Notes under the pieces: model-generated
Databases searched by the model: none
What the model was told of the DNA's origin: nothing
Seen by the model: the letters and a program-made list of their open reading frames with translations, nothing else
Virus record (IMG/VR): IMGVR_UViG_3300019458_000612
Coordinates: 1 to 50,113 of that record
DNA length: 50,113 nt
Origin: a virus
Strand: one strand, 5' to 3'
Shown: positions 10,671-40,276 of the stretch, one piece after another
Numbering within the stretch: the first letter of the stretch is position 1
Layout: every line of letters starts with the position of its first letter
Made by a program: the position numbers and the translations under genes

Positions 10671-10975
10671 GGCGCGATCAGGTTCGGGTGGTTCTGAATC
10701 GCCATGTGGAGATAGTCCGTCATGACGTGCTGCAGCTCGTGCAGCACCAGGTATCGCTTCCGGGTGATCGGCGCCCGCGACAAGATCCGGATCCGCGCGA
10801 GCCCGTTGCCGTCGTACTGCCAGTCCGCGTCGTTGCCCTCATCCTCGGCGACCTCGCGCCCACAGTGATCACACGGCTTGGCATCCCGGAGGGCCTGGCG
10901 GGGCACCATCTGCACCTGGACGGCGAGCCCCGGGAGCACGATCGCCCTCGGGATGCGGAACGGCTTGATCTTCAC
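10667..10975 (-). CDS. small HExxH zinc-metallopeptidase-like protein
   Basis: The 102-residue protein contains LHELQHVMTDYLH at about residues 80-92, an HExxH zincin motif with a downstream histidine, and a CDHCG knuckle at about residues 35-39. Minimal zincins of this kind occur in phages but are poorly characterised. The GTG start overlaps the stop of the intein-bearing gene by four bases. A role in virion maturation or in attacking host proteins is possible but unproven. Confidence 0.6.
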   Translation of the reverse strand: MKIKPFRIPRAIVLPGLAVQVQMVPRQALRDAKPCDHCGREVAEDEGNDADWQYDGNGLARIRILSRAPITRKRYLVLHELQHVMTDYLHMAIQNHPNLIAP

Positions 10976-13296
10976 GCCGTCTTCTCCACCTTGAGCGGGC
11001 GGAGGTGGATCGGGCGAGCCCACGTGACTCCGCGTTCCTTGTGGACCCCCATGAGCCACTGCGCCGGCACGTCGCCAAGCTGGAGCCGCTTCAGCGAGAA
11101 CTCCGTCCCGCCCGGCCAGGACCCATTCAGCCAGATCGCGTTGAAGTGGGCGATCACCGAGTGGTGCCCCGCCGCCATGAAATCGAAATCGCCGAACTCC
11201 TCCCGGAGCTGCTTGAACAGCTCCCGGTACCGCGCCTTGTGGCGGACCACCGCGTAGAACGGGATCCCCGCCCATCCCATCCCGGAGTTGTGATGCACAA
11301 GGTATCCGGCCCCCGCCACGAACGTGTGGCTCTCTGTCTCCAGATCGTAGACGGCCCCGTCGAACATGCCGAGCGATCGCACCTGCTTCACCTCGCCGGA
11401 TACTCTGCCGGCAAGGGCTCGTACGTGCTTTACGGTGGTAATCGTCTTCTTGTCTTGCCGTACCCCGATGCTGGTGATGGCGCCCAACCGTTCCAGCAGG
11501 AACTGGATACCCGCCGCAAGGGACAGGTCCTTCGTATCGGCCTTCCAGTGGCCAGAGTGTGTGTCGAAGCAGCCGTCTCCGGCCAAGTACCCGTCCAGGA
11601 ATGACCGCATCACCTTGGGACTCGCATTCAGGATCTGGATCGGGACCTTCTTGTACCGAACCCCGTCCGGACCGTCACCGTACATCCACGTGCGGACGAA
11701 GCCACAGGCGGCCCGGCCGAGCCTCAGCTGGTGACAGGGCCTGCGGCGAGGGTGTGGAGGTTCGCCGGCCCTGTGTATCGAACACGGCTGGCCGAACAAA
11801 CCTTCAAACGCGTGGCGAGCGCGCTCGAGGAGGTCCAGATCGGTATTGGCGACCCTCGCGTGCCATGATCTGTAGCCGGCATCATCGATGTGACACGTCA
11901 ATGACCCTTCGGCGGCGAACAGTCCGCACGCCCACGCGACCTCATCGCCCATCGTGTCGTAGGCCCCGCCATCGCTCTCGACCGGTCTGACCGTATCGAT
12001 GACGGTGCCTGGGATGAGGGTCTGCGGCTTCCGCTCCTCCCCGCCTGCGATCAGGGAATGATCGTCGGTCACCTTCGTTCTGCCATCAGACGTGACGACG
12101 TCGAACAGCTCCTTCTTCACCAGGTGTCGGTAGACGCCGAGGAGCCTCGTCCATCCGGATCCGGAGAGCACTTCCAGACGTGACGTGCCGCGATACCATC
12201 CGCTGGCCTTGTCAGATCGGTAGAGCGAGGCGATCGGTGCGATGTCAATGAACCGGCCACCGCGACGGATCATGACCGGCACGTCCCCGGTCACGGAGTC
12301 GTCCCCGTGCACCAAGAGCCACTTCCAGCCCATGACCTGGGCGATGTCCCACCACGATTCGCTGACCTTCCAGGTCAGGTTCTTCACGGGCTTCAACCGC
12401 TCCTCCCACATTCGGTAGAGCAGGTAGTCGAAGTTGGACATCGGCGAGTGCTCGCCCTTTCGACCGATGCGCCCGTGGTTGCCGACGACCCCGCGGCAGT
12501 GCACCGACTCGAACATGCCGGCGAGCTGTGCCTGGAACGCGCCGAAGTGTTCCCAGCACAGCAGGACCTGCTGGATCACGTTCGCGTCGATCTCCCGCAG
12601 CTGGCCACCATATATGGTCTCGTTCTCCACGATGTCGCCCAGCCAGAACACGTGCAGGCGTCGCACGTTCGGGTGGTACTTCCGGATCGAGGCAATCGAC
12701 TTCAAAAGATATGCGATCTGATCGAGCAGGATCTCCGAGCCAAATGACCCGAGCCCGCCGGACTCGTGGGCATCAACCTTCAGGCCCGCCTGGACGTCGG
12801 AGATCAGGAGCACCATCTCCTCCTCGCCGAGCCCCTTGCTGACCTGGATCGATGGCGAGCGCAGCACCGGCATGGCGGGCAGGTTCGCCACCGCTCCGAT
12901 GATCTTCTGCCCGAGCATCTCGAAGAACGTCTGGCGTCCCGTGAGGCGGGCGATCTCCCGGCGCGCGAGATCCCGCTCCAGCTTCTCCTCGGGCGACAGC
13001 TGCGGCTCCTCCGGCTTCGGCGGCTTCGGCGGCTTCGGTTTTACCGGGTTGTGCTCGGTCCGCTGCTCGTAGGCGCGCCGCTTGGTCTCCGCGTTCATCG
13101 GGACGTTGAACTGCTGGCGCAGCCCCTGGGCGGCCGACCGTATCAGCTGTACCCCGCACCGTTCGTGGATCGCGTCAATCAGCTCGGGCTGAGTCAGCGA
13201 CGGCGCCGTCTTGAGCAGCCACTCCCGAAAGCCGGGCACCTGGGACCACAGAATCCGTCCGTGCGCGGTCCGCGGCAGCTTCTTCGGATCGAGCAT
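10972..13296 (-). CDS. metallophosphoesterase interrupted by an intein
   Basis: The 774-residue precursor comprises a 437-residue enzyme and a 337-residue intein. Extein motifs match calcineurin-like phosphoesterases: LLISDVQAGLKVDAH (about 185), FWLGDIVEN (about 245), GVVGNHGRIG (about 300), the split HGDD/SGMGWAGIPFYA, and AAGHHS. The N-terminal 100 residues form a helical DNA-binding-like domain with a proline/lysine linker. Phages encode such enzymes as nucleases or phosphodiesterases. The ATG at 13296 follows a run of about ten guanines that acts as ribosome-binding site. After splicing, the active-site HGD motif would be restored. Confidence 0.88.
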   Translation of the reverse strand: MLDPKKLPRTAHGRILWSQVPGFREWLLKTAPSLTQPELIDAIHERCGVQLIRSAAQGLRQQFNVPMNAETKRRAYEQRTEHNPVKPKPPKPPKPEEPQLSPEEKLERDLARREIARLTGRQTFFEMLGQKIIGAVANLPAMPVLRSPSIQVSKGLGEEEMVLLISDVQAGLKVDAHESGGLGSFGSEILLDQIAYLLKSIASIRKYHPNVRRLHVFWLGDIVENETIYGGQLREIDANVIQQVLLCWEHFGAFQAQLAGMFESVHCRGVVGNHGRIGRKGEHSPMSNFDYLLYRMWEERLKPVKNLTWKVSESWWDIAQVMGWKWLLVHGDDSVTGDVPVMIRRGGRFIDIAPIASLYRSDKASGWYRGTSRLEVLSGSGWTRLLGVYRHLVKKELFDVVTSDGRTKVTDDHSLIAGGEERKPQTLIPGTVIDTVRPVESDGGAYDTMGDEVAWACGLFAAEGSLTCHIDDAGYRSWHARVANTDLDLLERARHAFEGLFGQPCSIHRAGEPPHPRRRPCHQLRLGRAACGFVRTWMYGDGPDGVRYKKVPIQILNASPKVMRSFLDGYLAGDGCFDTHSGHWKADTKDLSLAAGIQFLLERLGAITSIGVRQDKKTITTVKHVRALAGRVSGEVKQVRSLGMFDGAVYDLETESHTFVAGAGYLVHHNSGMGWAGIPFYAVVRHKARYRELFKQLREEFGDFDFMAAGHHSVIAHFNAIWLNGSWPGGTEFSLKRLQLGDVPAQWLMGVHKERGVTWARPIHLRPLKVEKTA
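11287..12297 (-). other. LAGLIDADG intein (337 residues, Ser1)
   Basis: The intein spans precursor residues 334-670. Its first residue is Ser (SVTGDVPVMIR, block A) and block B has VTDDHSLI with the expected His. Block C, ACGLFAAEGS, and block E, LDGYLAGDG, are the two LAGLIDADG motifs of a homing endonuclease. Block F reads VYDLETESHTFVAG, and block G ends VHHN followed by Ser as +1 residue. All splicing residues (Ser1, His, terminal Asn, Ser+1) are present, so it should be active. It is inserted directly after the catalytic HGD of a metallophosphoesterase. Confidence 0.9.
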
Positions 13297-13339
13297 TACC
13301 CCCCCCCCCTCGACGAGTCCGGACCCGCGCCAGCGGGTC

Positions 13340-15913
13340 TCATCCAAGTTCAGGTTCCTCGCCGAACTCGTCGTCCTCGTTGAGCAATTGGTAGCTGCGC
13401 GACGCCGTCGGATCCTCGCCGGACGCGAGTCCGCCCCGATCCGCAAGCGCATCGTCGGCGATCGGGAAGTCCTGGCTGAGCGGGTTCATCAGGATCTCGC
13501 CAGTCTCCAGATCCCACCCCTCCACGAACCCCTCCTCGCCCTCGTCGAGGGTCCGGTACAGGAGGTCGGGCGCCAGGCCGCGGACATCCGGCTCCTGCCA
13601 CCGCGCCTTCAGGTCCGGGGCCGCGGCCTGCTGGAGGAACGTGGCGCCGGTCTGCCGCGCCAGGTCCGCGACCATGACGCGCTGGGCGCCGGGCGCCCCC
13701 TCGTGCCACACGATGTGCCGCGGCGTCGACGCCAGGAGGGTCGCCACCGAGTCGTCGAGCATCTCGACCGTCTCGATCGGCGTGAACGACCCGTTCAGCA
13801 CGAAGCCCCGCACCTGCGTGTGGCCGGTGACGAGGTCCCGCGCCTCCAGGACGAACCACCAGCGCCGGCTCGCGCTCTGCGGGTGCCAGGTGATCAGGCG
13901 CATGTCCTGGACGCTGTAGCGCTTGAGCTGCCGGACCCACTGCCACGTGAACGACCAGCTGACCTCCAGCCCGACGAAGTTGTCGTCGCCGTAGTTGAGC
14001 GGCACGCTGATCAGGTAGGACGCGCTGTTCATGTGCGGGGTCCCGGCGACCCCCTGGGTCGTCGAGCTGTACTGGCCGCTCGTGTCGAACTCGGCGACGT
14101 TCCAGAGATCGTTCTGGAATCCTGTCCGCCCCTGCGTCCCGATCGTGCCGAGGGTCATGGTCTTTGCCCCGGGGAGCGCGAAGCTCGTCGGCTCGACCGT
14201 CGCGACGAGCGACTTCCGGATGTTGCACGCCGGGTCTCCGGTCTGCTGCGTCTCCCAGTAGACGAGCGCCGGCACCGCGCGGACCGGCTCAGTCGCGTAG
14301 TGGTCGTAGGCGAGCGGGGCGTCGAGCGTGTTGACGACGTCCTCGCCGACCAGGCCGATGCTGGTGATCCGCCGGACCTCCATCGTCGAGAGCCCTATCC
14401 CGATGAACAGCGGGTCGCCGACCACCTGGTTCCAGGAGCCGATGATCGCTGCCTGGCCGGCCGTCCCGATCCTCGTCCCGGCGTGCGGCGGCTCGATGCC
14501 GGTGTTCACGAGCTGGTCCCAGTTGAGCCACGGGCCATCGAACGCCTGCTGCGAGAGCAGGCTCTTGGTGTCCAGCGTGGCGTAGCTCTCGTCGATCGCC
14601 AGGGCCTTGACGGGGTTGACGTGCGCGCCGGTCGTGCTCCACAGGAGCGTCCCGGTGGACACGTTGACGACGTAGACGTGCGTCTCGCGGATGTCGAACG
14701 CCGCCTTGATGTTCGGGAGAGTATCTGGCGCCTGCTCGATGGCCTGGAGCGGCGTGACCCAGTTGGGGTCCTGGAACGACTCGGGGTAGCGGTACGCGAC
14801 CGACGACTGGTCCTGCGTATCGCCCGGGCGGATGTTCCCGGAGAACTGCACGCGCAGCAGGATGACGGCGATGACCTGGTGGTCGGCCGTCAGGGAGTAG
14901 TCGTGCAGGACCGGCGTGAACTCCGGGATGTCCCCGTCGCCTTCGACTGCCGCGACCTCGTCATAGAGCGCCTGGTTCAGCCGAATGAGCCGGTGCACCT
15001 CCGTCGCGACGCTGACGTTCCCCTCGTCCTTCTTCACGTTCCCGAGGTGCGCATTCTCTGGCGGCGGGTCGGCGACGAACGACAGAACTTCGAGCTGCCC
15101 GCCCGTCCCGGTGACGCAGTTCGGCGGCTCCGGCATCTCCGCCCGCTTGTTCCCGACATTGTTGAGGAACTCCGCGACCTGGGCCTGCGTGCGACAGGAC
15201 GTGCTGATGCCGACGACCAGACAGACGTCCGGATCGTTGCCAACGCCGGGGTTCTGGATGGTGAACGACTGGACGGTCGCGGTCCGGGTCTCTTCCCAGG
15301 CCTGGGTGGCGGTGACGCGCTTCCCGGCTCCCGAGCGCGTGAACGTCCCGTCCAGAAGGACATGGGTCGGCGCGAACAGGTCGTGCGTGGCCTCGAGGGT
15401 CGGGTCCGGCGCCTCGCCCGCCCCGAACGGCTCCTGCTCGCCCGCCCGCTCGAACGTGAAGACCGAAAAGCGGTTCGGGCGCATCAGCACGACGAACGAG
15501 TCCCGGTCGGCGCCCCACTTCACCCCCGTGGGATCGGCGGGCAGCCGCGGGCGGAGCCCGAGCGGCGTGGCGATGCCGTGATTTCGGAACCACACCTCGA
15601 CGAGCCCGGTGTCCGGGTCGGGCGCGACGTAGAGCTCCTCTATGATCCCGAGTCGGCGGACGTCCTGGTGCTGCCGGCGGGCCGGCCGGCGCGCAAGCTT
15701 CACGATCAGCGTCGGCCGCCCGCTCTTGTGGGAGACCCAGACGATCTCGCCGACCTTCGGCTGGACCCCGCGCACCGCGGTGATCGTGACACCCTCGACC
15801 CGGAAGGTGCCATCCGCGTTCACCGCATCCACGCGGGCCCGCTTGAGCCCGGCCGTCCGCTGGAGCCCGCGCAGGGCGTCGCCCAGGGCCTTGGCGGCGC
15901 TCTCGACCGACAT
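13340..15913 (-). CDS. large tail-tip/baseplate protein
   Basis: The 857-residue protein opens with a short OB-fold-like beta domain (FRVEGVTITAVRG, VGEIVWVSHKSGRPTLI, about residues 35-72), as in phage baseplate hub or spike proteins. The rest is beta-rich with many tryptophan/aspartate turns (for example VYVVNVSTGTLLWSTTGAHV), suggesting beta-propeller blades. Its ATG overlaps the upstream stop (TGATG) in the tail-tip operon. It probably forms part of the distal tail structure contacting the host. Confidence 0.65.
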   Translation of the reverse strand: MSVESAAKALGDALRGLQRTAGLKRARVDAVNADGTFRVEGVTITAVRGVQPKVGEIVWVSHKSGRPTLIVKLARRPARRQHQDVRRLGIIEELYVAPDPDTGLVEVWFRNHGIATPLGLRPRLPADPTGVKWGADRDSFVVLMRPNRFSVFTFERAGEQEPFGAGEAPDPTLEATHDLFAPTHVLLDGTFTRSGAGKRVTATQAWEETRTATVQSFTIQNPGVGNDPDVCLVVGISTSCRTQAQVAEFLNNVGNKRAEMPEPPNCVTGTGGQLEVLSFVADPPPENAHLGNVKKDEGNVSVATEVHRLIRLNQALYDEVAAVEGDGDIPEFTPVLHDYSLTADHQVIAVILLRVQFSGNIRPGDTQDQSSVAYRYPESFQDPNWVTPLQAIEQAPDTLPNIKAAFDIRETHVYVVNVSTGTLLWSTTGAHVNPVKALAIDESYATLDTKSLLSQQAFDGPWLNWDQLVNTGIEPPHAGTRIGTAGQAAIIGSWNQVVGDPLFIGIGLSTMEVRRITSIGLVGEDVVNTLDAPLAYDHYATEPVRAVPALVYWETQQTGDPACNIRKSLVATVEPTSFALPGAKTMTLGTIGTQGRTGFQNDLWNVAEFDTSGQYSSTTQGVAGTPHMNSASYLISVPLNYGDDNFVGLEVSWSFTWQWVRQLKRYSVQDMRLITWHPQSASRRWWFVLEARDLVTGHTQVRGFVLNGSFTPIETVEMLDDSVATLLASTPRHIVWHEGAPGAQRVMVADLARQTGATFLQQAAAPDLKARWQEPDVRGLAPDLLYRTLDEGEEGFVEGWDLETGEILMNPLSQDFPIADDALADRGGLASGEDPTASRSYQLLNEDDEFGEEPELG

Positions 15914-23343: not shown

Positions 23344-24025
23344 TACCCGCCCCCGAGGAAGGTGCGCACCTGGTCCTGGGAAATGATGCGGACCCCTGCC
23401 GGCGCCACGGCCTTGCTGGGCTTCGCACCCGCCAGCGTCCGGAGCCGCTCCAGATGCGCGTGCCGGTCCTCAGCGCTCATCCACGGCACCGCCCGGTCCT
23501 CGATCGCCTGAAGCCGCTCGCGAGCCTGGATCTCCACCGCCAGCGCGTTGTAGCGCGTCAGCTGCGCCAGGCTCATCTCCATCAGGCTCCGATGGCTCCA
23601 GCCGTAGAAGCGGGCGGCGCGAGCGAGCTCGAAGCCGATCCGGAGCTCGAGCCCGCCACCGGAGGGTTTTCCGGGCCGCCCTCCGCCGGCTCTGGCTTCG
23701 ACATCTCGTAGAACGCCCGCGCGATCCCGATCAGCTGCCGCGTGGTCAGCGCGCCCAGGTCCTCGTCGGGCATCGTCGGGCAGAGCAGCCGGATGGTCTG
23801 CTTGGCCCGGGTGATGGACCCGGCCAGGTCGTCGGGCCGCAGCTCGTCGGCCAGCTCGTTGCCCAGCGCCTCGAGCGCGTGCTTGATCGGCAGGTCGACC
23901 CAGCTCCGCACCGGGTAGGTCTTCCCGGTCTCCAGCTGGACCAGGACCTCGTCCGGTGGCAAGAAGGTGCGCACGTCGATGATCCGTTCCTTGCGCCCAG
24001 CGGCGTGCGGCGTGTCCTGCGCCAT
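23343..24025 (-). CDS. tail assembly chaperone, long -1 frameshift product (G-T type)
   Basis: The short product (23582-24025) shifts -1 near 23666-23672 and continues through the frame that ends at 23343. It gains about 110 residues with ARFYGWSHRSLMEMSLAQL and LGGG at the end. Lambda gpG/gpGT and most siphovirus chaperones use the same arrangement. The downstream frame has no good start of its own before the slip site, and its TAA overlaps the tape-measure ATG, so translation through to the tape measure is coupled. About 227 residues when fused. Confidence 0.7.
23582..24025 (-). CDS. tail assembly chaperone, short product (gpG type)
   Basis: The 147-residue protein has a helical core: RIIDVRTFLPPDEVLVQLETGK, then WVDLPIKHALEALGNELADELRPDDL and LTTRQLIGIARAFYEM. 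It is typical of the small tail assembly chaperone that precedes a tape measure. The start at ATG 24025 has GGAGG five bases upstream, and this ribosome site begins inside the stop codon of the IsrB gene. The last 30 residues (serine/alanine-rich) lie beyond the slip site. Confidence 0.75.
   Translation of the reverse strand: MAQDTPHAAGRKERIIDVRTFLPPDEVLVQLETGKTYPVRSWVDLPIKHALEALGNELADELRPDDLAGSITRAKQTIRLLCPTMPDEDLGALTTRQLIGIARAFYEMSKPEPAEGGPENPPVAGSSSGSASSSLAPPASTAGAIGA
23666..23672 (-). promoter_or_regulatory. probable -1 frameshift slip site GGAAAAC
   Basis: On the minus strand the in-frame codons GAA AAC can re-pair as GGA AAA after a -1 slip. The A-site match is good; the P-site match is imperfect. 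It lies where the chaperone frame and the downstream chaperone extension overlap and share the expected continuation. Confidence 0.5.
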
Positions 24026-24033
24026 AGAACCTC

Positions 24034-25080
24034 CTACGCGGCGGGAACCCCGGCATTCATGCCGGGGAGGAGCCGCGTCCTCCACGCGTTGAACGGGGCC
24101 AGCACCACGCAATCTGCCGGACGCGCGTGCTTCGTGAGCCGCGCGCCGGTCTCCACCGAATGCAGGCTGACTCGGTCGCCCGCGTTGCCCCCGACGTAGG
24201 CCATGCCAAACTTGTAGTGCTTGACCAGCGCACCGCGCTTGAAGCCGTGGCTCCGGGTGCCGCCGTACGGGCCCCGCACTCCGCACTTCGCCGGCTGCAA
24301 CCTGTGCAGCTGCCGCCGGTGGAACCGGAGCGGCGTGACGCGCAGGAGTCGGGTGCAGTCCGGCGTGGCGTGCCCGCCGGTGGCGCTGTTCGCCAGCACC
24401 CAGGAGTCCACACAGTGCGCCTCGAAGACCTCCGCGCTCTTGTCTGCCGTCTTCGCGAGCCCGAGCTGCTCCCGCAGCGCCGCCGTCTCCTCGACCTTCC
24501 GCGTGTCTACCGGCGCGATCTGGGCGAGCTCGTCGTAGAACAACCGCTTCCCGACCTCGATCGGCGAGAAGTTCCGATTCCAGTGCCGCGCCTCGCCGGT
24601 CTTCCCCTTCTGCGTCTTGACCTTGACGTCCTCCACGACGAAGACGCTGACCGGGTACCGCCGCGCAAGCCACCCGGCCAGCCGCAGCTTCCATTGCCAC
24701 CTCGCCTTCGTGCTCGGCGGGATCCCGCCCCGCGCCCGGTTCTGCCGGTTCGCTCGGCAGGGCGTCGTCCGGTATCGCCTGGCCCGCCGCATGTTTCTCC
24801 TGGTCTCCACCGCCCTCGACACGTGCGTGACCGCGTCCGCGTGAACGTTCAGGAACGTTCGCTTCCCCGACTTGACCGTGAACCCCTCCCACTTGCTGCC
24901 CGGATCGATTCCGACAACGACCGGCTGGGTCTCGCCATCCTTCCGGTCCACGAGCTGCAAGTAGAACAGCCCGCGGTCGAACCGGCGCAGGGCGCGACCC
25001 TTCCGGACGAGCTCCCTCGCTCGCGCCGGGTGACACGGCATCAACGGCTTGCCATCTGCTCCAACCACCGGGACGTACAT
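24034..25080 (-). CDS. isrB: IsrB-like RNA-guided nickase (HNH-less IscB family)
   Basis: The 348-residue protein has the PLMP-domain motif (GKPLMPCHPARARELV, residues 10-25) that defines IscB/IsrB proteins. It has a split RuvC nuclease: GIDPGS with D59, FVVED with E150, and FEAHCVD with H222 and D225. An arginine-rich bridge helix lies at residues 94-117. Only about 70 residues separate RuvC-II from RuvC-III, so there is no HNH domain, and the size equals that of known IsrB (about 350). The C-terminal YGGTRSHGFKRGALV and AYVGGNAG match the family's target-recognition domain. IsrB nicks the non-target DNA strand under omega-RNA guidance. ATG 25080 is chosen because family members begin with (M)xVPV; the reading frame is open further upstream. 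Confidence 0.93.
   Translation of the reverse strand: MYVPVVGADGKPLMPCHPARARELVRKGRALRRFDRGLFYLQLVDRKDGETQPVVVGIDPGSKWEGFTVKSGKRTFLNVHADAVTHVSRAVETRRNMRRARRYRTTPCRANRQNRARGGIPPSTKARWQWKLRLAGWLARRYPVSVFVVEDVKVKTQKGKTGEARHWNRNFSPIEVGKRLFYDELAQIAPVDTRKVEETAALREQLGLAKTADKSAEVFEAHCVDSWVLANSATGGHATPDCTRLLRVTPLRFHRRQLHRLQPAKCGVRGPYGGTRSHGFKRGALVKHYKFGMAYVGGNAGDRVSLHSVETGARLTKHARPADCVVLAPFNAWRTRLLPGMNAGVPAA
24048..24067. repeat. terminal hairpin of the IsrB element
   Basis: CCCCGGCAT and ATGCCGGGG form a perfect 9-base stem around a 2-base TC loop. It lies inside the last codons of isrB, as is common at the right end of IS200/IS605 elements, where TnpA recognises a subterminal hairpin. On the minus strand it also could act as a transcription terminator or translation damper, but there is no T tract. 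Confidence 0.65.
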
Positions 25081-25340
25081 CAAGGCGTTACCGCCTCCTC
25101 GCCCTTCGCAGGGCGGCAACTGAACCCCTCGCCGCTGACGGTCCGAGAGGCGGCAGGCTGGGGTAGCACCCGCCGCGTCGTGTGCCCTGCCACGGGCAGG
25201 CCGTTCAGCACAAGCCGGCTAGTCAACGAGTTGCCCTCGAGCCTCGCGCGTTGGCATCGCGCTCCACCCGAGCCTCGGACGTCAGTCCGGGGTCGTTGAC
25301 GGCTCTCTCCTTTCGTGGAGTCACCCCGATCGAGATCGAT
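25081..25340 (-). ncRNA. HEARO/omega-RNA-like guide RNA of IsrB
   Basis: The gene-free stretch upstream of isrB on the same strand is as long as known HEARO/omega RNAs and folds by eye. CTCC/GGAG closes a hairpin at its 5' side (25310-25320). GTCAACGA (25293-25300) pairs with TCGTTGAC (25222-25229). CCTGCC/GGCAGG forms a perfect hairpin with a 3-base loop (25186-25200). GTTCAG pairs with CTGAAC. The final GCGAA-looped stem lies 30 bases before the isrB start. The guide would be at the 5' end, near 25325-25345; exact ends are uncertain. Confidence 0.75.
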
Positions 25341-25361: not shown

Positions 25362-26219
25362 TTACAGGTCCTCGGGGCGGTCTCCGAAGTACGCCCACAT
25401 GCCCTGCTCGTTGGGCCACGCCTCGAAGTTGGCGGTGATCACCCGCTGCTCGGTGGGATGGAACGGCAGGCTCACCTCCCCGTCGACCGGGCTGATCTCC
25501 GGGATGACGAGGATGTCCTTCGGGTCGGTCGACTCCGCGCCGCCGAAGATCTTGCGGATCTCCATCTTCACGGCCAGCTCGCGCATCGACTGGCCGACCT
25601 GCGACACGAACTCGACCCGGGTGCGCTCGCTGTCTGCGTCCTGCACCAGGATCGAGTTGGGGATCCCGCGCTGGAGGTTCTCGAGCGAGATCTCCTTGAA
25701 CGGAATGGCCACCTTGAACGACCCGCCCGAGATGACCTTCCCCTGCGGGATGTCGCCCGTCTGCGCGCCGGTCAGCACGATCGCGTTGGTGCCGATCGTC
25801 ACCAGGAGCCCGACGTCGAGGAACCCGACGTTGGTGGGCACCCCGGTATCCGAGCCGCCAGCGAGGTTGTCCTGCGGGAACGCCTGGATCGGGTCGGTCC
25901 CGTCACCGATCAGGGAGACGACGACCAGGCGGCGGGCCCGCGGATCCGCCGCGATGGCGTCCCGCACCTCCGCCGCCGTCGCGCCGGTTGGCGGCGAGAC
26001 CACGATGTCGGTGCCGTCGACCTCGACCTCGATGTCGCCGCTGCCGGCCGGCGCCTCGATCGCGATCGTGATCTGGTTGCCCGCCGCTCCGGCGCGCTTG
26101 GCTCGGAAGAACAGCCCCGCATCGCCAGACCCCACGTCCAGCGTCGCGTAAGGCAGGGCGTAGATGTAGACGTTGGCCGGCCCGAGTTCGAGCAGATTCG
26201 CGTTCAGTCCCCCAGCCAT
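25362..26219 (-). CDS. major tail tube protein
   Basis: The 285-residue protein has an N-terminal tube-type start (NLLELGPANVYIYALP) and a C-terminal tail with SVKMEIRKIFGG-like and WPNEQGMWAYFGDRP strands. Between them, at about residues 45-115, sits a beta/alpha insert (GNQITIAIEAP, VDGTDIVVSPPTGATAAEVRDAI, LVVVSLIGDG). That insert resembles a domain also found in tail sheath and tube proteins. It is the gene before the tail chaperone and after the head-tail joining genes. GGAGGG lies eight bases before the ATG. Confidence 0.75.
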   Translation of the reverse strand: MAGGLNANLLELGPANVYIYALPYATLDVGSGDAGLFFRAKRAGAAGNQITIAIEAPAGSGDIEVEVDGTDIVVSPPTGATAAEVRDAIAADPRARRLVVVSLIGDGTDPIQAFPQDNLAGGSDTGVPTNVGFLDVGLLVTIGTNAIVLTGAQTGDIPQGKVISGGSFKVAIPFKEISLENLQRGIPNSILVQDADSERTRVEFVSQVGQSMRELAVKMEIRKIFGGAESTDPKDILVIPEISPVDGEVSLPFHPTEQRVITANFEAWPNEQGMWAYFGDRPEDL

Positions 26220-27501: not shown

Positions 27502-28169
27502 AGCCCCACCATGGCCGGCACCCGCGTGTACTGGCCGAGCAGCATCCCGAGCTCCGGGTTACCCGTCAGGACGTTCGTGAAGACCCCATCAGCCAGCGTG
27601 TAGCTGTAGTTCCCGAGCGTCTCGGACTTCACCGCCGCTCCGCTGCTCCCCTGCGTCAGCGGCCTCATCGTGCCGATCACCAGGAGCGCGCACGCCCGCT
27701 GGATCCCCACCGGCGCCGTGTCGTCGGCCTCCACGAACCCGAAGCTGCCCTCGAGCTCGATGTTCTGGACGTCGGCGGCGAACGTCTTCGCCAGCTGGGG
27801 CCCGAAGGCCCGCTCCAAGCGCAGGAGCGATCGGAACTCGATCCGCGGGTACCAGAAGTCGTCAGCCCCGGTCTCCGGCCGCCGGCTGTAGACCACGTAT
27901 TCGGAGGCGTTCACGCCCTGGCCATCGACCCGGAACGCCGTGATCGCCTTGGCCGGCGCCGGCAGCTCCAGGATCGGCGTCCCGCGCCCCTCCAGGATCA
28001 GCGCCCCGGATCCGCTGAAAGTCCGCAGGTCGAACCAGAGCCCGGTCTGGCGATCGATGTAGCTTTTGGCCATCGTGCCCAGCGCCACCAGGCGAGCGTC
28101 GGACACGCTGTCCGGCACGCCCTCGGCCCGGAGGTCCTCGACGGTGGTGTACCCGGCCTGGGTCGGCAT
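27498..28169 (-). CDS. head-tail connector (gp6-like) protein
   Basis: The 223-residue protein starts with a helical segment (VEDLRAEGVPDSVSDARLVALG, AKSYIDRQTGLWF), the typical N-terminal of head-tail connector proteins (HK97 gp6/SPP1 gp15). A beta part with ILELPAPAKAITAFRVDGQ follows. The ATG overlaps the glycosyltransferase stop by one base. Confidence 0.7.
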   Translation of the reverse strand: MPTQAGYTTVEDLRAEGVPDSVSDARLVALGTMAKSYIDRQTGLWFDLRTFSGSGALILEGRGTPILELPAPAKAITAFRVDGQGVNASEYVVYSRRPETGADDFWYPRIEFRSLLRLERAFGPQLAKTFAADVQNIELEGSFGFVEADDTAPVGIQRACALLVIGTMRPLTQGSSGAAVKSETLGNYSYTLADGVFTNVLTGNPELGMLLGQYTRVPAMVGL

Positions 28170-29185
28170 CAGGCGACCACCTCGGCCAGCTTCACCGGCG
28201 CCCCACATCGCAGCGCCAGCTTCCACTCCGGCCCCACCTGGTCCATCGTGTGGTTCGCTTCGACCCACGCCCGGGCCCGCACGCCAATCTCGAGGCGGTC
28301 ACTCACCCGGGTGATCAGCTCCAGCAGGAGCGACTCCCAGAGATCCGTCCGGTTGTCTTTCACCCGGTATCCGGTCACCCCGTTCTCGATGCATTGGTAC
28401 GGCCCGACGTCGGATGCCACGACCGGCAGCCCCAGCGCGCCGTACTCGATCAGCTTGACGGGGCTCTTCGAGAAGTTGAACCGGTGCTCGGCCAGCGGCG
28501 CGATCGCGAGGTCCAGGTCGAGCGCCGCCAGACGCGGATACAGCTGATCCGCCGCCACCCACTTGTGCTGCTCGACCCGCTCGACCCCCTTGGTCCACGG
28601 CGGCGCCCACCCGAGGAATACGAGCCGGACCTCCGGGCGCAGCTCGAGGACGCGCTTGAGCGCCGCCTCCGCCATCCGCAGGTCGCCCTCGTGGGTCCCG
28701 CTCCCGGCCCAGCCGATCCGCACGGTCTCGCGCGGCTGTTGCGCTGGCGCCGGCACCAGCGATAGGTCGATCCCGTTGGGGATCACCCGCACCTCGCGGT
28801 TGATCCGGTACAAGATCTCGGCCAGCTCGTTCGTCGTCGCGATCACGAGGTCACAGGCCGCGATCACGCGCTCCATCTGGAACACAACGTCCTTGGTGAA
28901 GTGCCGCCGGAGCGGGTTCCACTCCGGCATCCTCCAGATGTCGTCGTCGAGCTCGTAGGCGACCAGGACCCCGCGGCGCCGGAGCTCGTGAACCGCCGCC
29001 GGCGCCTGGGGCGACCGGGTCCGCTGCAAGACCACGGCCGTCACGCCCTCGAAGTCCTGCGGGGTCACGACGTCGTACTTCACCGCTGCGGGCACCCCCG
29101 CGGCGCGCAGCCACCGCGCCGGCAGCTCGCACCGGTACCAGGCCGGCCCGTCGTGCGCTCCGGCTCCGAACAGGAGCTTCGACAT
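28169..29185 (-). CDS. glycosyltransferase, GT-B (GT1/GT4-like)
   Basis: The 338-residue protein has a GT4-like layout. The N-terminal domain holds GPAWYRCELPARWL and VLVAYELDDDIWRMPEW. An IPNGIDLSLVP segment and IGWAGSGTHEGDL open the second domain. A late region with NFSKSPVKLIEYGALGLPVVASDVGPY (about residues 250-275) carries the nucleotide-sugar-binding E-x7-E-like part. It may modify capsid or tail proteins. The chosen ATG gives 338 residues; a GTG 30 bases upstream (29215) is an alternative. It is unusual to find it inserted among head-connector genes. Confidence 0.8.
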   Translation of the reverse strand: MSKLLFGAGAHDGPAWYRCELPARWLRAAGVPAAVKYDVVTPQDFEGVTAVVLQRTRSPQAPAAVHELRRRGVLVAYELDDDIWRMPEWNPLRRHFTKDVVFQMERVIAACDLVIATTNELAEILYRINREVRVIPNGIDLSLVPAPAQQPRETVRIGWAGSGTHEGDLRMAEAALKRVLELRPEVRLVFLGWAPPWTKGVERVEQHKWVAADQLYPRLAALDLDLAIAPLAEHRFNFSKSPVKLIEYGALGLPVVASDVGPYQCIENGVTGYRVKDNRTDLWESLLLELITRVSDRLEIGVRARAWVEANHTMDQVGPEWKLALRCGAPVKLAEVVA

Positions 29186-29219
29186 GGCAGGCGGGTTCGA
29201 TGGCGTCACCGCCACGGCC

Positions 29220-36249: not shown

Positions 36250-36972
36250 CTACTTCACGCGCCACTTCCGTCGGAAGTGCGCGAGGTTCTCCTGCTGGTA
36301 TCGTTGGAGCTCCTCCGCGCCGTAGACCGCCTTGAACGTCGTCCGGTGGTGGTGCACGACAGTCACGTCCTCACGGAGCGCCAGCTTCCAGCCGGCACGC
36401 TTGGCGCGCTCGCAGTAGTCGTCGTCGTCCCCGAGACCGGACCGATACTCCTCGCTCAGGTACCCCACCTGCTCGATGACCTGGCGCCGGATCAGGCAGC
36501 AGAAGAACGCGAGCATCGCGTTGCTGGCCAGCACTCGATAGCCCTGGCCTGTCGGCACACGCCCCTGCCACTGCTGGTCGGAGGTTGAGCGGGGCCCGAC
36601 CAGGCCAATCTTCGGATCCAGCTCGAAGACCTCGAGGAGGCGGCTCAACCAGTCCTCGCCAGGCATCGGCGGCAGCTCGGTGTCGTTGTTGAGCAGGAGC
36701 AGGAACGGCGCCGTCGAGGCGGCGATCCCGAGATTCGTGCCTTTCACAAACCCGAGGTTCTCGGGCAGCCAGAACCGGAGGTGCTGGATCCGCTCCGTCT
36801 CGAGGTACGCCAGGACCCGATACCGGTCCACGGTCGTCGACCCATTGTCGATCCAGATCAGCCGGACCGAGGTCCGCGCGGGGACCGTGGCCGACAGGCT
36901 CCTGAGACACGCGAGCGTCATGTCCGCCTGGTTCAAGGTCGGCGTGATGACGTCAACAATGGGCGGCGTCAT
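36250..36972 (-). CDS. GT-A (family 2) glycosyltransferase
   Basis: The 240-residue protein has VDVITPTLNQADMTLACLRSL at the N-terminus, then IDNGSTT and FLLLLNNDTELP (DxD-like). SGLGDDDDYCERAKRAGWKLALREDVTVVHHH follows. This is the GT2 pattern; it probably transfers a sugar to a phage or surface substrate. It ends in HFRRKW, like the GT at 38259-38969. It overlaps the upstream gene as ATGA. Confidence 0.85.
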   Translation of the reverse strand: MTPPIVDVITPTLNQADMTLACLRSLSATVPARTSVRLIWIDNGSTTVDRYRVLAYLETERIQHLRFWLPENLGFVKGTNLGIAASTAPFLLLLNNDTELPPMPGEDWLSRLLEVFELDPKIGLVGPRSTSDQQWQGRVPTGQGYRVLASNAMLAFFCCLIRRQVIEQVGYLSEEYRSGLGDDDDYCERAKRAGWKLALREDVTVVHHHRTTFKAVYGAEELQRYQQENLAHFRRKWRVK

Positions 36973-37178
36973 TCTCGCCGTTTCCAGGCTTTCGTCGGCC
37001 ACCACTCGGATCCACCCATCTCCCGGCGGGCGTACACCTGCTCATTCCGCCGGCCTGGGTTGAACACGTCACGTACCTCGCCCAGCGACCGTAACAGTCC
37101 TCTCACGGCTGCCAGGCTCTCACCCAGCGGGGTCATATCAACTACTTCCCCGATCTTCAGCGTGTTCCGCCTAAGCAT
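36969..37178 (-). CDS. hypothetical protein, 69 aa
   Basis: Starts at ATG 37178 inside the end of the deacetylase-like gene (overlap eight bases) and ends as ATGA with the next glycosyltransferase. Basic with a helix ESLAAVRGLLRSLGEV and a tryptophan near the end. Its exact overlaps support it as real, and it would be coupled to the sugar cluster. No family recognised. Confidence 0.55.
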   Translation of the reverse strand: MLRRNTLKIGEVVDMTPLGESLAAVRGLLRSLGEVRDVFNPGRRNEQVYARREMGGSEWWPTKAWKRRE

Positions 37179-37767
37179 CAGCCTTCCCCGCCATCACCTC
37201 GGACGCCCACGCAAACGGTCCCTCGAGCCCAGCGTAGACGTCCCACAGCTCCTCGAGTCCGTTGGTTCCGATGTTCTGGATGTGGCCGTGCACACGGCCC
37301 GGCCGGTCCAACAGGTACACCGGCAGGGTTGACGGCCGCTTGGCGTTGTTCCGCTCGTGGTCCGCGATCCACCAACCTCGTGCTTCCAGCGCGCGGTAGA
37401 GCCCGTCCGAGGTCTGCCAGTACGGCGCCTTGAACCCGTTCACGAAGACGGCTGTCGCCTCCGCCTGCAGCAGCACGTCGAGCGCCCGCTCGTAGTCCCA
37501 GTCGCGGCATTCCAAGTAGGTGTGGCGAAACCCGTGGAGCGCGATCTCCAGCCACGGCCGCTGCGCCTTCACCTCACGCAGGAACTCGACGCCGGCCTCG
37601 AGCTCTCGGCCGACAGGAGCCGGCACCGAGAACAGCGTGATCTTCAGGTCCGGCTTCATCGCCTTCAGCCGGTCCAGGAGATCGAGCCGGTGGTTGACGA
37701 CGCTGAAATCGTCGAGATCGAGGACCGTGATGCGTTGCTCCTGGCACGCCTCAGACGCGTGTCCCAT
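37171..37767 (-). CDS. polysaccharide deacetylase-like (DUF2334-type) protein
   Basis: The 198-residue protein begins VLDLDDFSVVNHRLDLLDRLK and goes on through LKITLFSVPAP, EIALHGFRHTYLECRDWDYERAL and VNGFKAPYWQTSDGLYRALEARGWWIADH to HGHIQN. HGF-H and DDF motifs suit a carbohydrate esterase 4-like fold with metal-binding Asp and His. It probably edits a glycan in the cluster. The start overlaps the end of the homing endonuclease by 17 bases. Confidence 0.7.
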   Translation of the reverse strand: MGHASEACQEQRITVLDLDDFSVVNHRLDLLDRLKAMKPDLKITLFSVPAPVGRELEAGVEFLREVKAQRPWLEIALHGFRHTYLECRDWDYERALDVLLQAEATAVFVNGFKAPYWQTSDGLYRALEARGWWIADHERNNAKRPSTLPVYLLDRPGRVHGHIQNIGTNGLEELWDVYAGLEGPFAWASEVMAGKADA

Positions 37768-37798
37768 CGGGCCTCGTCCGCTCCTCACGCCACTTCCT
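37751..37798 (-). repeat. gene-junction direct repeat, copy at the end of the homing endonuclease
   Basis: Aligned with 38259-38306, 37 of 48 bases match. Both copies contain the last codons of a reading frame (EERTRPDGTxV, stop) and the ATG of the next gene at the same 17-base overlap. Confidence 0.85.
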
Positions 37799-38275
37799 GG
37801 CCGTCGTACCCTTCCGCCCGGGCCAGACTTTGCGGTACTCAGAGTACATTCCTTCGAGCCTGGCGATGGCCTCCGGCGACGCCGTTCCATACCTGCCGCC
37901 CTTATCACGACCACGGCCAGGCAACACATCTTGCTTGACAGCAAGAAAACGAAGAAGAGCGACCGCAGGTGCCGCCTTCAACACCAGATGCGGCAGCACA
38001 TCATCTAGCAGCGATCCGAGGACAGTCTCTCCAACATCCCAACGCCATCGAATCTTACCGCGATGCGACGGGTAGCTATGTCGCTTCGGCTCAACACCGA
38101 ACCACCCGCAAACCGTCTTCAGTGGCTCTTCCGTGCCCATCGTGAACGTCAGACGAGCCTCGAACTGCGGCGTCCTAGCTCTCGGGTTGCCTGTCGATCT
38201 TTGAATCGAGAGTCCGCCCTCGCCGTCGATCAGCCCGGCTAGGTAGCCCAGCCGCGCTTCAGACAGCCGTGCCAT
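37751..38275 (-). CDS. free-standing LAGLIDADG homing endonuclease
   Basis: The 174-residue protein has one clear LAGLIDGEGG motif at residues 12-21, a SIQRSTGNPRARTPQFEARLTFTMG strand set, and a WDVGETV segment. It is single-motif, so probably a homodimer, like I-CreI-type enzymes. The last residues RKWREERTRPDGT repeat the glycosyltransferase end next to it. It cuts DNA lacking the insert and is copied by repair. Gene starts 17 bases inside the glycosyltransferase end. Confidence 0.88.
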   Translation of the reverse strand: MARLSEARLGYLAGLIDGEGGLSIQRSTGNPRARTPQFEARLTFTMGTEEPLKTVCGWFGVEPKRHSYPSHRGKIRWRWDVGETVLGSLLDDVLPHLVLKAAPAVALLRFLAVKQDVLPGRGRDKGGRYGTASPEAIARLEGMYSEYRKVWPGRKGTTARKWREERTRPDGTRV

Positions 38276-38306
38276 CAGGCCGCGTCCTCTCCTCGATCCA
38301 CTTCCT
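38259..38306 (-). repeat. gene-junction direct repeat, copy at the end of the glycosyltransferase
   Basis: Partner of the repeat at 37751-37798. It includes the glycosyltransferase C-terminus and the homing-endonuclease ATG at the same relative place. Confidence 0.85.
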
Positions 38307-38969
38307 TTTGAAGTACTCCGGATACCGGAGCGCCTGGGCATCTGTGCCCAGGTAATGCCTGACCACCAGGTCCTCGACGTAGCCCACCGCGACGCCGTGC
38401 CCGGTGAGCCAGCCGCAGAACGCATCGTCCTGGCCACTGGCCAACGGCAGGTCCTCCGGGTAGCGCCACTCCCGGTAGACCTCCCAGGGCACCAGGTGGA
38501 AGAGCCCGCCGATCATGCCCGTGACCCCTACGATGAATCCGCCGCGCCCCATGCGGCGGATCCGCGCCGGCTGGTTGATGATCCCGCTCACCCGCGGCGA
38601 CAGGGCCATCTTCTCCGCGAACCGCCGCTGATCTCGAAAACAGGCCACCAGCTTCTCGAGGATCCCGTCGGTCAGGACCTCGCAGTCGTTGTCGACCTTT
38701 CCGACCAGGTCGTACCGGCCCAACTGCGCGATCATCCCGAGCATCGCGTTCGATCCGATGCTGACGCCCACGTTCCTCGGGAGCTCGACCAGCTCATGAA
38801 TCCGGCCTGCCTCCCGCTGTTCGCGCAGCCACGCCGGACTCCCATCCTCGGAACCGTTGTCGAGCACGTAGTGGTCCAACGGGTAGCCCGCCTTGTCCCA
38901 GAGCGTCCGAAAACAGTGCTGCGTGAACTCAAGGCGGTCACGCGTCAGCGAATAGATCGCGACGTTCAT
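38259..38969 (-). CDS. GT-A (family 2) glycosyltransferase
   Basis: The 236-residue protein begins MNVAIYSLTRDRLEFTQHC, with DNGSEDGSPAWL, then GKVDNDCEVLTDG (DxD-like) and SGQDDAFCGWLTGHGVAVGYVEDLVVRHYLG. This is a GT2 fold. It ends FKRKWIEERTRPDGTAV. It starts as ATGA at the end of the C2H2-like gene. Confidence 0.85.
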   Translation of the reverse strand: MNVAIYSLTRDRLEFTQHCFRTLWDKAGYPLDHYVLDNGSEDGSPAWLREQREAGRIHELVELPRNVGVSIGSNAMLGMIAQLGRYDLVGKVDNDCEVLTDGILEKLVACFRDQRRFAEKMALSPRVSGIINQPARIRRMGRGGFIVGVTGMIGGLFHLVPWEVYREWRYPEDLPLASGQDDAFCGWLTGHGVAVGYVEDLVVRHYLGTDAQALRYPEYFKRKWIEERTRPDGTAV

Positions 38970-39124
38970 GGTTCCCTCTCGCGCGCCTTGATCCGGACCC
39001 ACTGGGTCGGATGCTTGATCCGCACGTGCCGCCGGACCTGCGACCACGGCGGCAGGAGACCCGGCGCCCACGGGTCGGTCTTCCAGCTGCACCACCGACA
39101 GCGGATCCCCGGGCGCTTGGCCAA
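38966..39124 (-). CDS. 52-residue C2H2-like zinc-finger protein
   Basis: The frame begins at TTG 39124 and its TGA overlaps the glycosyltransferase ATG. Cys9, Cys12, His33 and His38 fall as C-x2-C-x20-H-x4-H (RCRWCSW to RRHVRIKH). That is a C2H2-like arrangement on a basic, tryptophan-rich peptide. No standard start with ribosome site is seen, so the exact N-terminus is uncertain. Function unknown. Confidence 0.5.
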   Translation of the reverse strand: MAKRPGIRCRWCSWKTDPWAPGLLPPWSQVRRHVRIKHPTQWVRIKAREREP

Positions 39125-39125
39125 C

Positions 39126-39707
39126 TCACGTTCTTCGCCCGGTGTAGAAGCGTCGGGTCGACGTCCACCGGACTCCGACCGTGTGGCAGTGCTGAGTCAA
39201 CATCGACTCGATGTCCCCCTCCTCGAACGTCCACGGCCCGTTCTCGTATCGCTCGGCCCGCCTGGGTGTCGCGGAGATGATCTTCAGGATCCCGTTGCGC
39301 CGACTCACGGTGACCCGCGCCATCTCCGCGACGACGGCGCGCGGGTCTGGCACCACCTCCAGCAGGTCGGCCGCGACCACCATCGTGAACGCCCCATCCG
39401 GGAATGGGAGCGCCGCGGCGTCGCCCTCGACCCAGGTGATCGCGGGCGCCCGTCGGCGCATCTGCTCGATCGCCCAGGGCGAGACGTCAAGGCCGGTCAG
39501 CCGGAGCCCGGGTCGCTGCTGCAGGAGCTCCGGTAAGAACCCGCCGATCCCGCAGCCGACATCCAGCACCGAGGCGTCAGGGGCAAGGTCCCTGAGCACG
39601 TACTCGAGGCGCGCCTCGTCGGCGGTCCAGGCGGGCGGCACGTCGACCCTGCGCCACTGCTCGTCGAACACGTCGGGCGTAAGTGGCTGTCGCTCGAGCC
39701 GGATCAC
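39126..39707 (-). CDS. class I SAM-dependent methyltransferase
   Basis: The 193-residue protein has motif I VLDVGCGIGGFLPEL near residue 45, LTGLDVSPWAIEQMRRRA, and VEGDAAALPFPDGAFTMVVAADLLEVVPDP. Its specificity is unknown; in a sugar cluster it may O-methylate glycans. The GTG start overlaps the dNMP kinase stop by four bases. Confidence 0.85.
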   Translation of the reverse strand: MIRLERQPLTPDVFDEQWRRVDVPPAWTADEARLEYVLRDLAPDASVLDVGCGIGGFLPELLQQRPGLRLTGLDVSPWAIEQMRRRAPAITWVEGDAAALPFPDGAFTMVVAADLLEVVPDPRAVVAEMARVTVSRRNGILKIISATPRRAERYENGPWTFEEGDIESMLTQHCHTVGVRWTSTRRFYTGRRT

Positions 39708-40276
39708 CGCACGTGCGCCTCGGCCCAGGCGTCGACCCGGGCCCAGAGCTCCTCGAGCGTCCCGTCGTTGCGGAACTCGTGGTCGACGCTCAGGCCGTCG
39801 ATGTAGTGCTCGCTTGCGTGGTCGTTGCCACTGAAGCCGGGTCGGACCACCCGGGCGAGCAGACCACCTCGGCTCCGAACCGAGTCGACCTCGTTCGGGA
39901 ACCGGGTGTCGGCGATGACGATCTTGGGCACGTCCTCGATCGAGTCGACCGTCGCCCACAGCGCCTTGACCCAGTAGTCCTCGTCCTCGGCGCGGCGAAG
40001 CTCTGTGCCCCATTCCTGCAACAGCGCGCGGGTCACCGGTGTGCGCTGGATGTAGAGCAACCGCCGGATCTCCGCTTCCATGTCCGCCGGCGGATCCACA
40101 CGCATCAGATGCGCCCGCTCCAGCACGTAGGCGACAAGAGTCCGCCCCAGGCGATCTCGCACCTCGCCCTTCAGCGCATCCGAGAATCCGTGGCGCCGGA
40201 AGCCGTACCGTGCCACCAGGCGCCGGGCCACCTCGTCCTTGCCGGCGTGAAAATGCCCGGTCAGCCCGATGACCAT
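39704..40276 (-). CDS. deoxynucleoside monophosphate kinase
   Basis: The 190-residue protein opens with a P-loop IGLTGHFHAGKDEVARRL, has a YGFRRHGFSDALK segment, and RTPVTRALLQEWGTELRR. IVIADTRFPNEVDSVRSRGG follows and a late SGNDHASEHYIDGL. This is the T4 gp1/phage dNMP kinase family, which raises the dNTP pool. The ATG is four bases after the preceding stop. Confidence 0.85.
   Translation of the reverse strand: MVIGLTGHFHAGKDEVARRLVARYGFRRHGFSDALKGEVRDRLGRTLVAYVLERAHLMRVDPPADMEAEIRRLLYIQRTPVTRALLQEWGTELRRAEDEDYWVKALWATVDSIEDVPKIVIADTRFPNEVDSVRSRGGLLARVVRPGFSGNDHASEHYIDGLSVDHEFRNDGTLEELWARVDAWAEAHVR

What the first reader, a model, noticed from the sequence alone, without database searches (positions are those of the whole stretch)
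24034..25080. IsrB, an HNH-less IscB-type RNA-guided nickase, inside a phage tail operon
PLMP domain, split RuvC (D59, E150, H222/D225), bridge helix and family-type C-terminus are all present, and there is no room for an HNH domain. IsrB elements are usually described in bacterial chromosomes and IS elements; one lodged between the tail tube and the tail chaperone of a phage raises the question of whether it helps the phage (for example by nicking rival genomes) or is only a passenger.
Basis: partly seen in the sequence, partly recalled or inferred. Interest (0 to 1): 0.93.

Follow-up and report, generated by a model that had tools for sequence, protein, structure and literature searches.

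The report
Phage IsrB parked at start codon
A phage carries a complete RNA-guided DNA-nicking element (IsrB with its guide RNA) inserted between the ribosome-binding site and the start codon of a tail gene; its guide is that ribosome-binding site, so it is probably a self-spreading 'homing' element rather than a weapon aimed at unrelated phages.

Summary
The gene is real. Window 25080..24034 (minus strand, 348 aa) is an HNH-less IsrB: best solved match DtIsrB (E=4.6e-50), RRXRR Pfam hit, AF2 model matching 8DMB (TM 0.77/0.82), D59/E150/H222/D225 invariant in all 35 viral sequences compared. The element spans 25300..24026. It ends exactly at the start codon of the downstream tail gene (ATGG, fitting the NTGA-type TAM), and its 20-nt guide is that gene's original ribosome-binding site. 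An empty site in relatives (L003 versus L140/L141/L145) confirms this border rule. Phage IsrBs are not rare: 46 viral loci of IsrB/IscB relatives in one scan, plus cultured Microcystis phages. They sit beside portal, head, baseplate, DNA polymerase and primase genes, mostly in records without a Y1 transposase, each with its own local guide. One sister-phage pair shows divergence next to the element, as homing co-conversion would leave. Most likely: an RNA-guided nicking homing element aimed at its own empty site. Harm to rivals is not excluded, but nothing here shows it. Nicking, homing and expression are inferred. The protein family is known; the phage niche and start-codon rule are the interesting part.

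The parts
24026..25300 (-). whole IsrB element (left end GTCAAC at 25300, right end just before the ATG at 24025), 1275 bp
   Evidence: left end shared by homologous leaders; right-end rule from homologues and from an empty site in relatives of L003; no empty site known for this phage itself
25301..25320 (-). predicted 20-nt guide CTCCACGAAAGGAGAGAGCC = original ribosome-binding site of the downstream tail gene
   Evidence: position 5' of the omegaRNA; single copy in the window; SD enrichment at this position across homologues
25081..25300 (-). omegaRNA scaffold (HEARO-like)
   Evidence: Rfam RF02033 full-length match 25300..25087, 35 bits, E=1.4e-5 in 601 bases, below gathering score; covariation in 24 of 30 predicted pairs
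24034..25080 (-). IsrB coding sequence, 348 aa: PLMP, split RuvC (D59, E150, H222, D225), bridge helix, C-terminal TAM-interacting domain, no HNH
24048..24067 (-). right-end hairpin CCCCGGCATGAATGCCGGGG inside the C-terminal codons
   Evidence: sequence; predicted fold; same layout in homologues
24030..24035 (-). AGGAGG in the right end, replacement Shine-Dalgarno for the downstream gene
   Evidence: sequence; anti-SD duplex -10.9 kcal/mol versus -8.7 for the original leader
24022..24025 (-). ATGG: start codon of the tail gene and predicted TAM (NTGR)
   Evidence: 46 of 48 abutting ATG starts in homologues are followed by A/G; DtIsrB TAM NTGA (PMC9581776)
23582..24025 (-). downstream tail gene, 147 aa (tail assembly chaperone by gene order)
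   Evidence: ORF; no family match
25362..26219 (-). upstream tail gene, 285 aa, Ig-domain / major tail protein
   Evidence: phrog_2175 E=1e-14; Bacillus phage major tail protein E=2e-5

Best explanation
A complete, probably active IsrB OMEGA element (omegaRNA plus IsrB nickase) is inserted exactly between the ribosome-binding site and the start codon of a phage tail gene. The 20 bases upstream of the element serve as guide, and the tail gene's start codon ATGG is the TAM. In an IsrB-less relative the guide would pair with the RBS region next to ATGG, and IsrB would nick the non-target strand there; during co-infection, recombination would copy the element and some flank into the recipient, as nicking homing endonucleases do. 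The carrier is immune because the insertion separates the target from its TAM. The insertion is tolerated because neither neighbour is broken and the right end supplies a new AGGAGG before the ATG. Shown: protein family, intact catalytic residues, conserved omegaRNA, border rule in relatives, guide/TAM geometry. Inferred: expression, nicking, homing.
For: IsrB identity and intact RuvC residues. omegaRNA with covariation. Element ends at ATG[A/G] of the next gene, 46 of 48 versus 72% in control starts, p=3e-5. SD motif at the guide end in 21 of 35 loci with an abutting start versus 18% in control windows, p=5e-8. Empty site for L003 with exact junction. Recent move of one element between unrelated sites, L015/L017. 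Neighbours are portal, head, baseplate, DNA polymerase and primase genes. 20 of 22 viral records lack Y1 transposase. Viral copies cluster on the tree, 7 label changes versus 26.6 shuffled. Divergence next to the element in otherwise identical sister phages L151 versus L152/L153. Nicking homing endonucleases exist in phages (PMC2988022, PMC11620839).
Against: No activity data. No relative of this phage with an empty site was found. Homing alone does not explain insertion at new sites. Chromosomal IsrBs in Chloroflexi and Poribacteria also end at start codons, so the rule is not phage-specific. The L151/L152 pair has two other divergent tracts and an irregular left junction. Tree clustering is favoured by a viral query. 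Many records are fragments, so absence of TnpA is weak.
Confidence: 0.55

Rival explanations
1. Ordinary IS200/IS605-type passenger: a TnpA supplied by the host or another element moves it, and IsrB nicks the rejoined empty site after excision so that the element is retained. Phages are only vehicles and no phage-to-phage homing is needed.
For: Known setting of IsrB (PMC9581776). Right-end hairpin of IS200/605 type. Two viral records (with L013 and L018) do hold a Y1 transposase. Multi-copy chromosomal relatives, for example Chloroflexi CFX5. The element moved to new sites.
Against: 20 of 22 viral records, the window included, show no TnpA. Viral copies form mostly viral clades. GC3 close to the phage's own suggests long residence.
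Confidence: 0.27
2. Phage weapon: the carrier gains by nicking co-infecting rivals at a conserved tail-gene start, lowering their yield.
For: Precedent: intron nickase gp210 of phage PhiPA3 harms PhiKZ (PMC11620839). Insertion sites lie beside essential late genes. A 17-nt guide stretch plus ATGG occurs at an RBS in an unrelated viral contig, L138.
Against: The guide is simply the flank of the insertion, not a chosen rival sequence. The L138 match is a single RBS-like site in an unrelated gene, best read as chance. Only related phages would share the full site.
Confidence: 0.11
3. RNA-guided regulator of the tail operon, as TldR is for flagellin: the complex binds rather than cuts.
For: TldR is a phage-encoded RNA-guided regulator derived from TnpB (PMC13418256). 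The element sits in an operon at a translation start.
Against: All catalytic residues are kept, unlike a binder. The guide has no second target in the window.
Confidence: 0.03
4. Inactive remnant.
For: The window leader is GC-rich, scores below the HEARO gathering cut-off, and the closing part of the omegaRNA is poorly aligned.
Against: Open frame of full length, four catalytic residues, left and right ends and omegaRNA core all intact.
Confidence: 0.04

Closest known systems
DtIsrB of Desulfovirgula thermocuniculi (PDB 8DMB, PMC9581776)
   Same: domain order, size about 350 aa, RuvC residues, no HNH, omegaRNA directly upstream, NTGA-type TAM position
   Different: about 34% identity; phage genome; omegaRNA about 220 nt instead of 262 nt
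HEARO RNA / IscB systems (Rfam RF02033; viral examples in PMC9755519)
   Same: structured RNA upstream of an RRXRR protein; viral carriers already reported
   Different: IscB has an HNH domain and cuts both strands; this protein lacks it
Ma-LMM01 gp171 (RRXRR protein of cultured Microcystis phages)
   Same: IsrB-like protein in a phage, 268-nt leader with LE-like GTCACTAACC, right end running into the ATGA start of gp170
   Different: about 33% identity; several LE-like copies in the leader; no HEARO hit up to E=0.05
Phage nicking homing endonucleases (T4 mob genes, I-HmuI, PhiPA3 gp210; PMC2988022, PMC11620839)
   Same: free-standing or intron-borne nickase next to essential phage genes; target is the element-less allele; co-conversion expected
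   Different: HNH enzymes with protein-read targets; here an RuvC nickase with an RNA-read target (homing itself not shown)

Membership tests
IsrB (OMEGA nickase) | PLMP and RRXRR N-terminal region | tested here: met
   Pfam PF14239 E=2.6e-35; PLMP at residues 12-15
IsrB (OMEGA nickase) | split RuvC with bridge helix and intact catalytic residues | tested here: met
   alignment to DtIsrB, 35/35 conservation, model
IsrB (OMEGA nickase) | no HNH domain | tested here: met
   348 aa, no HNH in Pfam; DtIsrB is the top structural match
IsrB (OMEGA nickase) | upstream omegaRNA | tested here: met
   sub-gathering HEARO match plus covariation
IsrB (OMEGA nickase) | TAM of NTGA type next to the target | tested here: met
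   by geometry only: ATGG here, ATG[AG] in 46 of 48 homologous loci with an abutting ATG start
IsrB (OMEGA nickase) | RNA-guided nicking of the non-target strand | not testable with these tools
   needs biochemistry
IS200/IS605 element | Y1 transposase TnpA in the element or genome | tested here: not met
   no PF01797 match in the window record; it could act in trans from the host
Phage homing element | inserted at, and guided to, its own empty site | tested here: met
   by anatomy: L003 versus L140/L141/L145; guide = flank
Phage homing element | copied into element-less relatives with co-conversion of flanks | tested here: inconclusive
   L151 versus L152/L153 shows the expected divergence next to the element, but other divergent tracts exist

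The most novel reading that the evidence does not exclude
Tailed phages carry their own long-lived lineages of RNA-guided homing nickases: IsrB elements without a transposase that use gene start codons as TAM and ribosome-binding sites as guides, so that each insertion spares both neighbouring genes while the guide is renewed at every new site. They would do the work of free-standing homing endonucleases with a replaceable RNA guide.
Probability: 0.42. Interest if true: 0.82.

Novelty: new member of a known kind. Interest (0 to 1): 0.6.

Why it matters
What IsrB does in nature is open, and here the anatomy gives a sharp, testable prediction: the start codon is the TAM, the ribosome-binding site is the guide, and the substrate is the empty allele in a co-infecting relative. 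[quoted passage not shown]

Tried and rejected
Empty site for the window's own phage: searches with the tail protein, capsid and downstream gene found no near relative. An exact search for 17 guide bases plus TAM found only an unrelated phage gene (L138), judged chance. A flank search for an empty site of the L022 jumbo phage found only the same phage. Rfam at gathering threshold finds no HEARO, so the omegaRNA rests on the sub-threshold hit plus covariation. Among six other phage loci HEARO was detected only in L013 and L018 at E up to 0.05, although L002, L003 and L015 align with the family. The careful tree did not finish; the quick tree was used. A programmed frameshift in the downstream tail gene was looked at by eye and left unproven. 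From memory and not verified: the paper that first described HEARO RNAs may already have noted integration before ATGA/GTGA, which would make the start-codon rule partly known; no paper in the held library stated it.

Full report
What is there. It matches Pfam RRXRR (E=2.6e-35, no HNH), and its best sequence match in the PDB is DtIsrB 8DMB (E=4.6e-50; IscBs follow at about 1e-8 and weaker). An AF2 model built from 27 window and locus sequences (pLDDT 81) finds 8DMB first (E=6e-26, TM 0.77/0.82, 34% identity) and IscB next. D59, E150, H222 and D225 are invariant in all 35 viral sequences compared. The surroundings are those of a tailed phage: portal, capsid (phrog_1623), head-tail adaptor, tail completion protein and a long ORF of tape-measure size.

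The guide RNA. The 280 bases between IsrB and the upstream tail gene hold a full-length HEARO match on the same strand, 25300..25087 (35 bits, E=1.4e-5 in 601 bases, 0.0011 in the whole window; below the 83-bit gathering score). It is better supported by comparison: in an alignment of 21 homologous leaders, most start with the same GTCAA..ACC, and RNAalifold predicts 30 pairs, of which 24 show changes on both sides with the pair kept. By IsrB rules the 20 bases before it, CTCCACGAAAGGAGAGAGCC, are the guide.

Borders and TAM. Across many viral and chromosomal homologues the right end carries a hairpin, a GTTTCC-like motif and then, some 10-20 bases on, ATGA or ATGG. In 27 of 32 viral loci a gene starts within -8..+40 of the IsrB stop. 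Where an ATG start abuts the element, 46 of 48 are followed by A or G, against 72% of control starts (p=3e-5; viral alone 24 of 25, p=0.003). This agrees with the NTGA TAM of DtIsrB (PMC9581776). The left flank ends in a Shine-Dalgarno-like motif in 21 of 35 of these loci against 18% in nearby control windows (p=5e-8), but in only 4 of 15 loci without an abutting start. So the guide is usually the ribosome-binding site that belonged to that start codon. Left ends were called by fuzzy match and starts by a simple ORF rule, so single loci may be wrong, and related loci are not fully independent.

An empty site. In L003 the element lies between portal and head-morphogenesis genes..GAGCAGTA|GTCAAG....GTTTT|ATGGCCATC. 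Relatives with about 65% similar head-morphogenesis proteins (L140, L141, L145) lack the element and have a TAATG overlap there. The element thus sits between TA and ATG without duplication, and its first G completes the portal stop codon (TAG). L015 and L017 carry nearly the same element (92% DNA identity over 1.2 kb) at unrelated sites, each with its own SD-like guide and ATGA. For the window the same rule predicts AAAGGAGAGAGCC|ATGGCGCAGG. No close relative of this phage was found to check it.

How the host gene survives. The insertion takes away the tail gene's RBS (anti-SD duplex -8.7 kcal/mol), but the element's right end offers AGGAGG four bases before the same ATG (-10.9 kcal/mol). GC3 of IsrB (0.905) is near that of the phage genes (0.905-0.96), so it is not a fresh arrival from a genome of different composition.

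Who carries it. One scan each found 46 viral loci (a few of them longer, IscB-like proteins) and 129 chromosomal matches, of which 80 were kept. Cultured Microcystis phages have a relative, and in Ma-LMM01 its right end also runs into ATGA, the start of gp170. Viral association of HEARO/IscB systems is already published (over 16% of contigs; PMC9755519). On a quick tree, virus and chromosome labels need 7 changes against 26.6 in shuffles; the query was viral, so sampling favours this. Twenty of 22 viral records have no Y1 transposase, though many are fragments. Neighbour genes include portal, head morphogenesis, baseplate hub, minor tail protein, DNA polymerase, primase and thymidylate kinase, the niche of phage homing endonucleases.

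Trace of movement. L151 (IsrB before portal) and L152/L153 (no IsrB) are identical over 700 bases on the left and about 1000 on the right, but differ by about 25% in the first 200 bases of portal next to the element and in a left tract. That is what co-conversion in homing would leave (PMC2988022). Two other divergent tracts lie elsewhere in the pair, and the left junction sits in a duplicated gene start, so I count it as consistent, not as proof.

Mechanism. Most likely: RNA-guided nicking of the RBS/start-codon site in IsrB-less relatives, followed by recombination that copies the element. Nicking homing endonucleases of this ecology exist (T4 mob genes, I-HmuI; PMC2988022), and one such nickase also harms a competitor (PMC11620839), so a benefit to the carrier phage is possible but nothing here shows it. 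Insertion at new sites needs transposition or ectopic recombination as well; a TnpA acting in trans, with IsrB serving retention, is the main rival account.

Verdict. The protein is a new member of a known kind; the homing role is the testable, more novel claim.

Noticed in passing
window 10972-13452, minus strand: 826-aa protein that reads as a metallophosphoesterase-like phage protein interrupted by an intein (..HGDD|SVTGDVPV.. to ..YLVHHN|SGMGW..) with a LAGLIDADG_3 domain; the intein borders are read by eye. A second homing-type element in the same phage.
   Followed up: partly
L015:9841-9890: A lone 50-base copy of the element's left end (GTCAAGTACTTCCGACTAAAGTCGGGGGCTTG..) directly followed by an ATGA gene start, with no IsrB: a relic or solo end.
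   Followed up: partly
L138:825-845: Unrelated viral contig with an exact match to 17 guide bases plus ATGG at the RBS and start of a different gene; probably chance, favoured by the RBS idiom.
   Followed up: yes
L005 and L038 (same contig IMGVR_UViG_3300025323_000011): Two different IsrB copies in one phage contig, one cut off by the contig end.
   Followed up: no
L137 (Ma-LMM01) 2172-2440: The leader of the cultured-phage IsrB holds several LE-like GTCACTAACC copies in tandem.
   Followed up: no
window 28169-29215 and 36250-40013, minus strand: Several glycosyltransferase and a methyltransferase gene lie among the structural genes of the phage.
   Followed up: no
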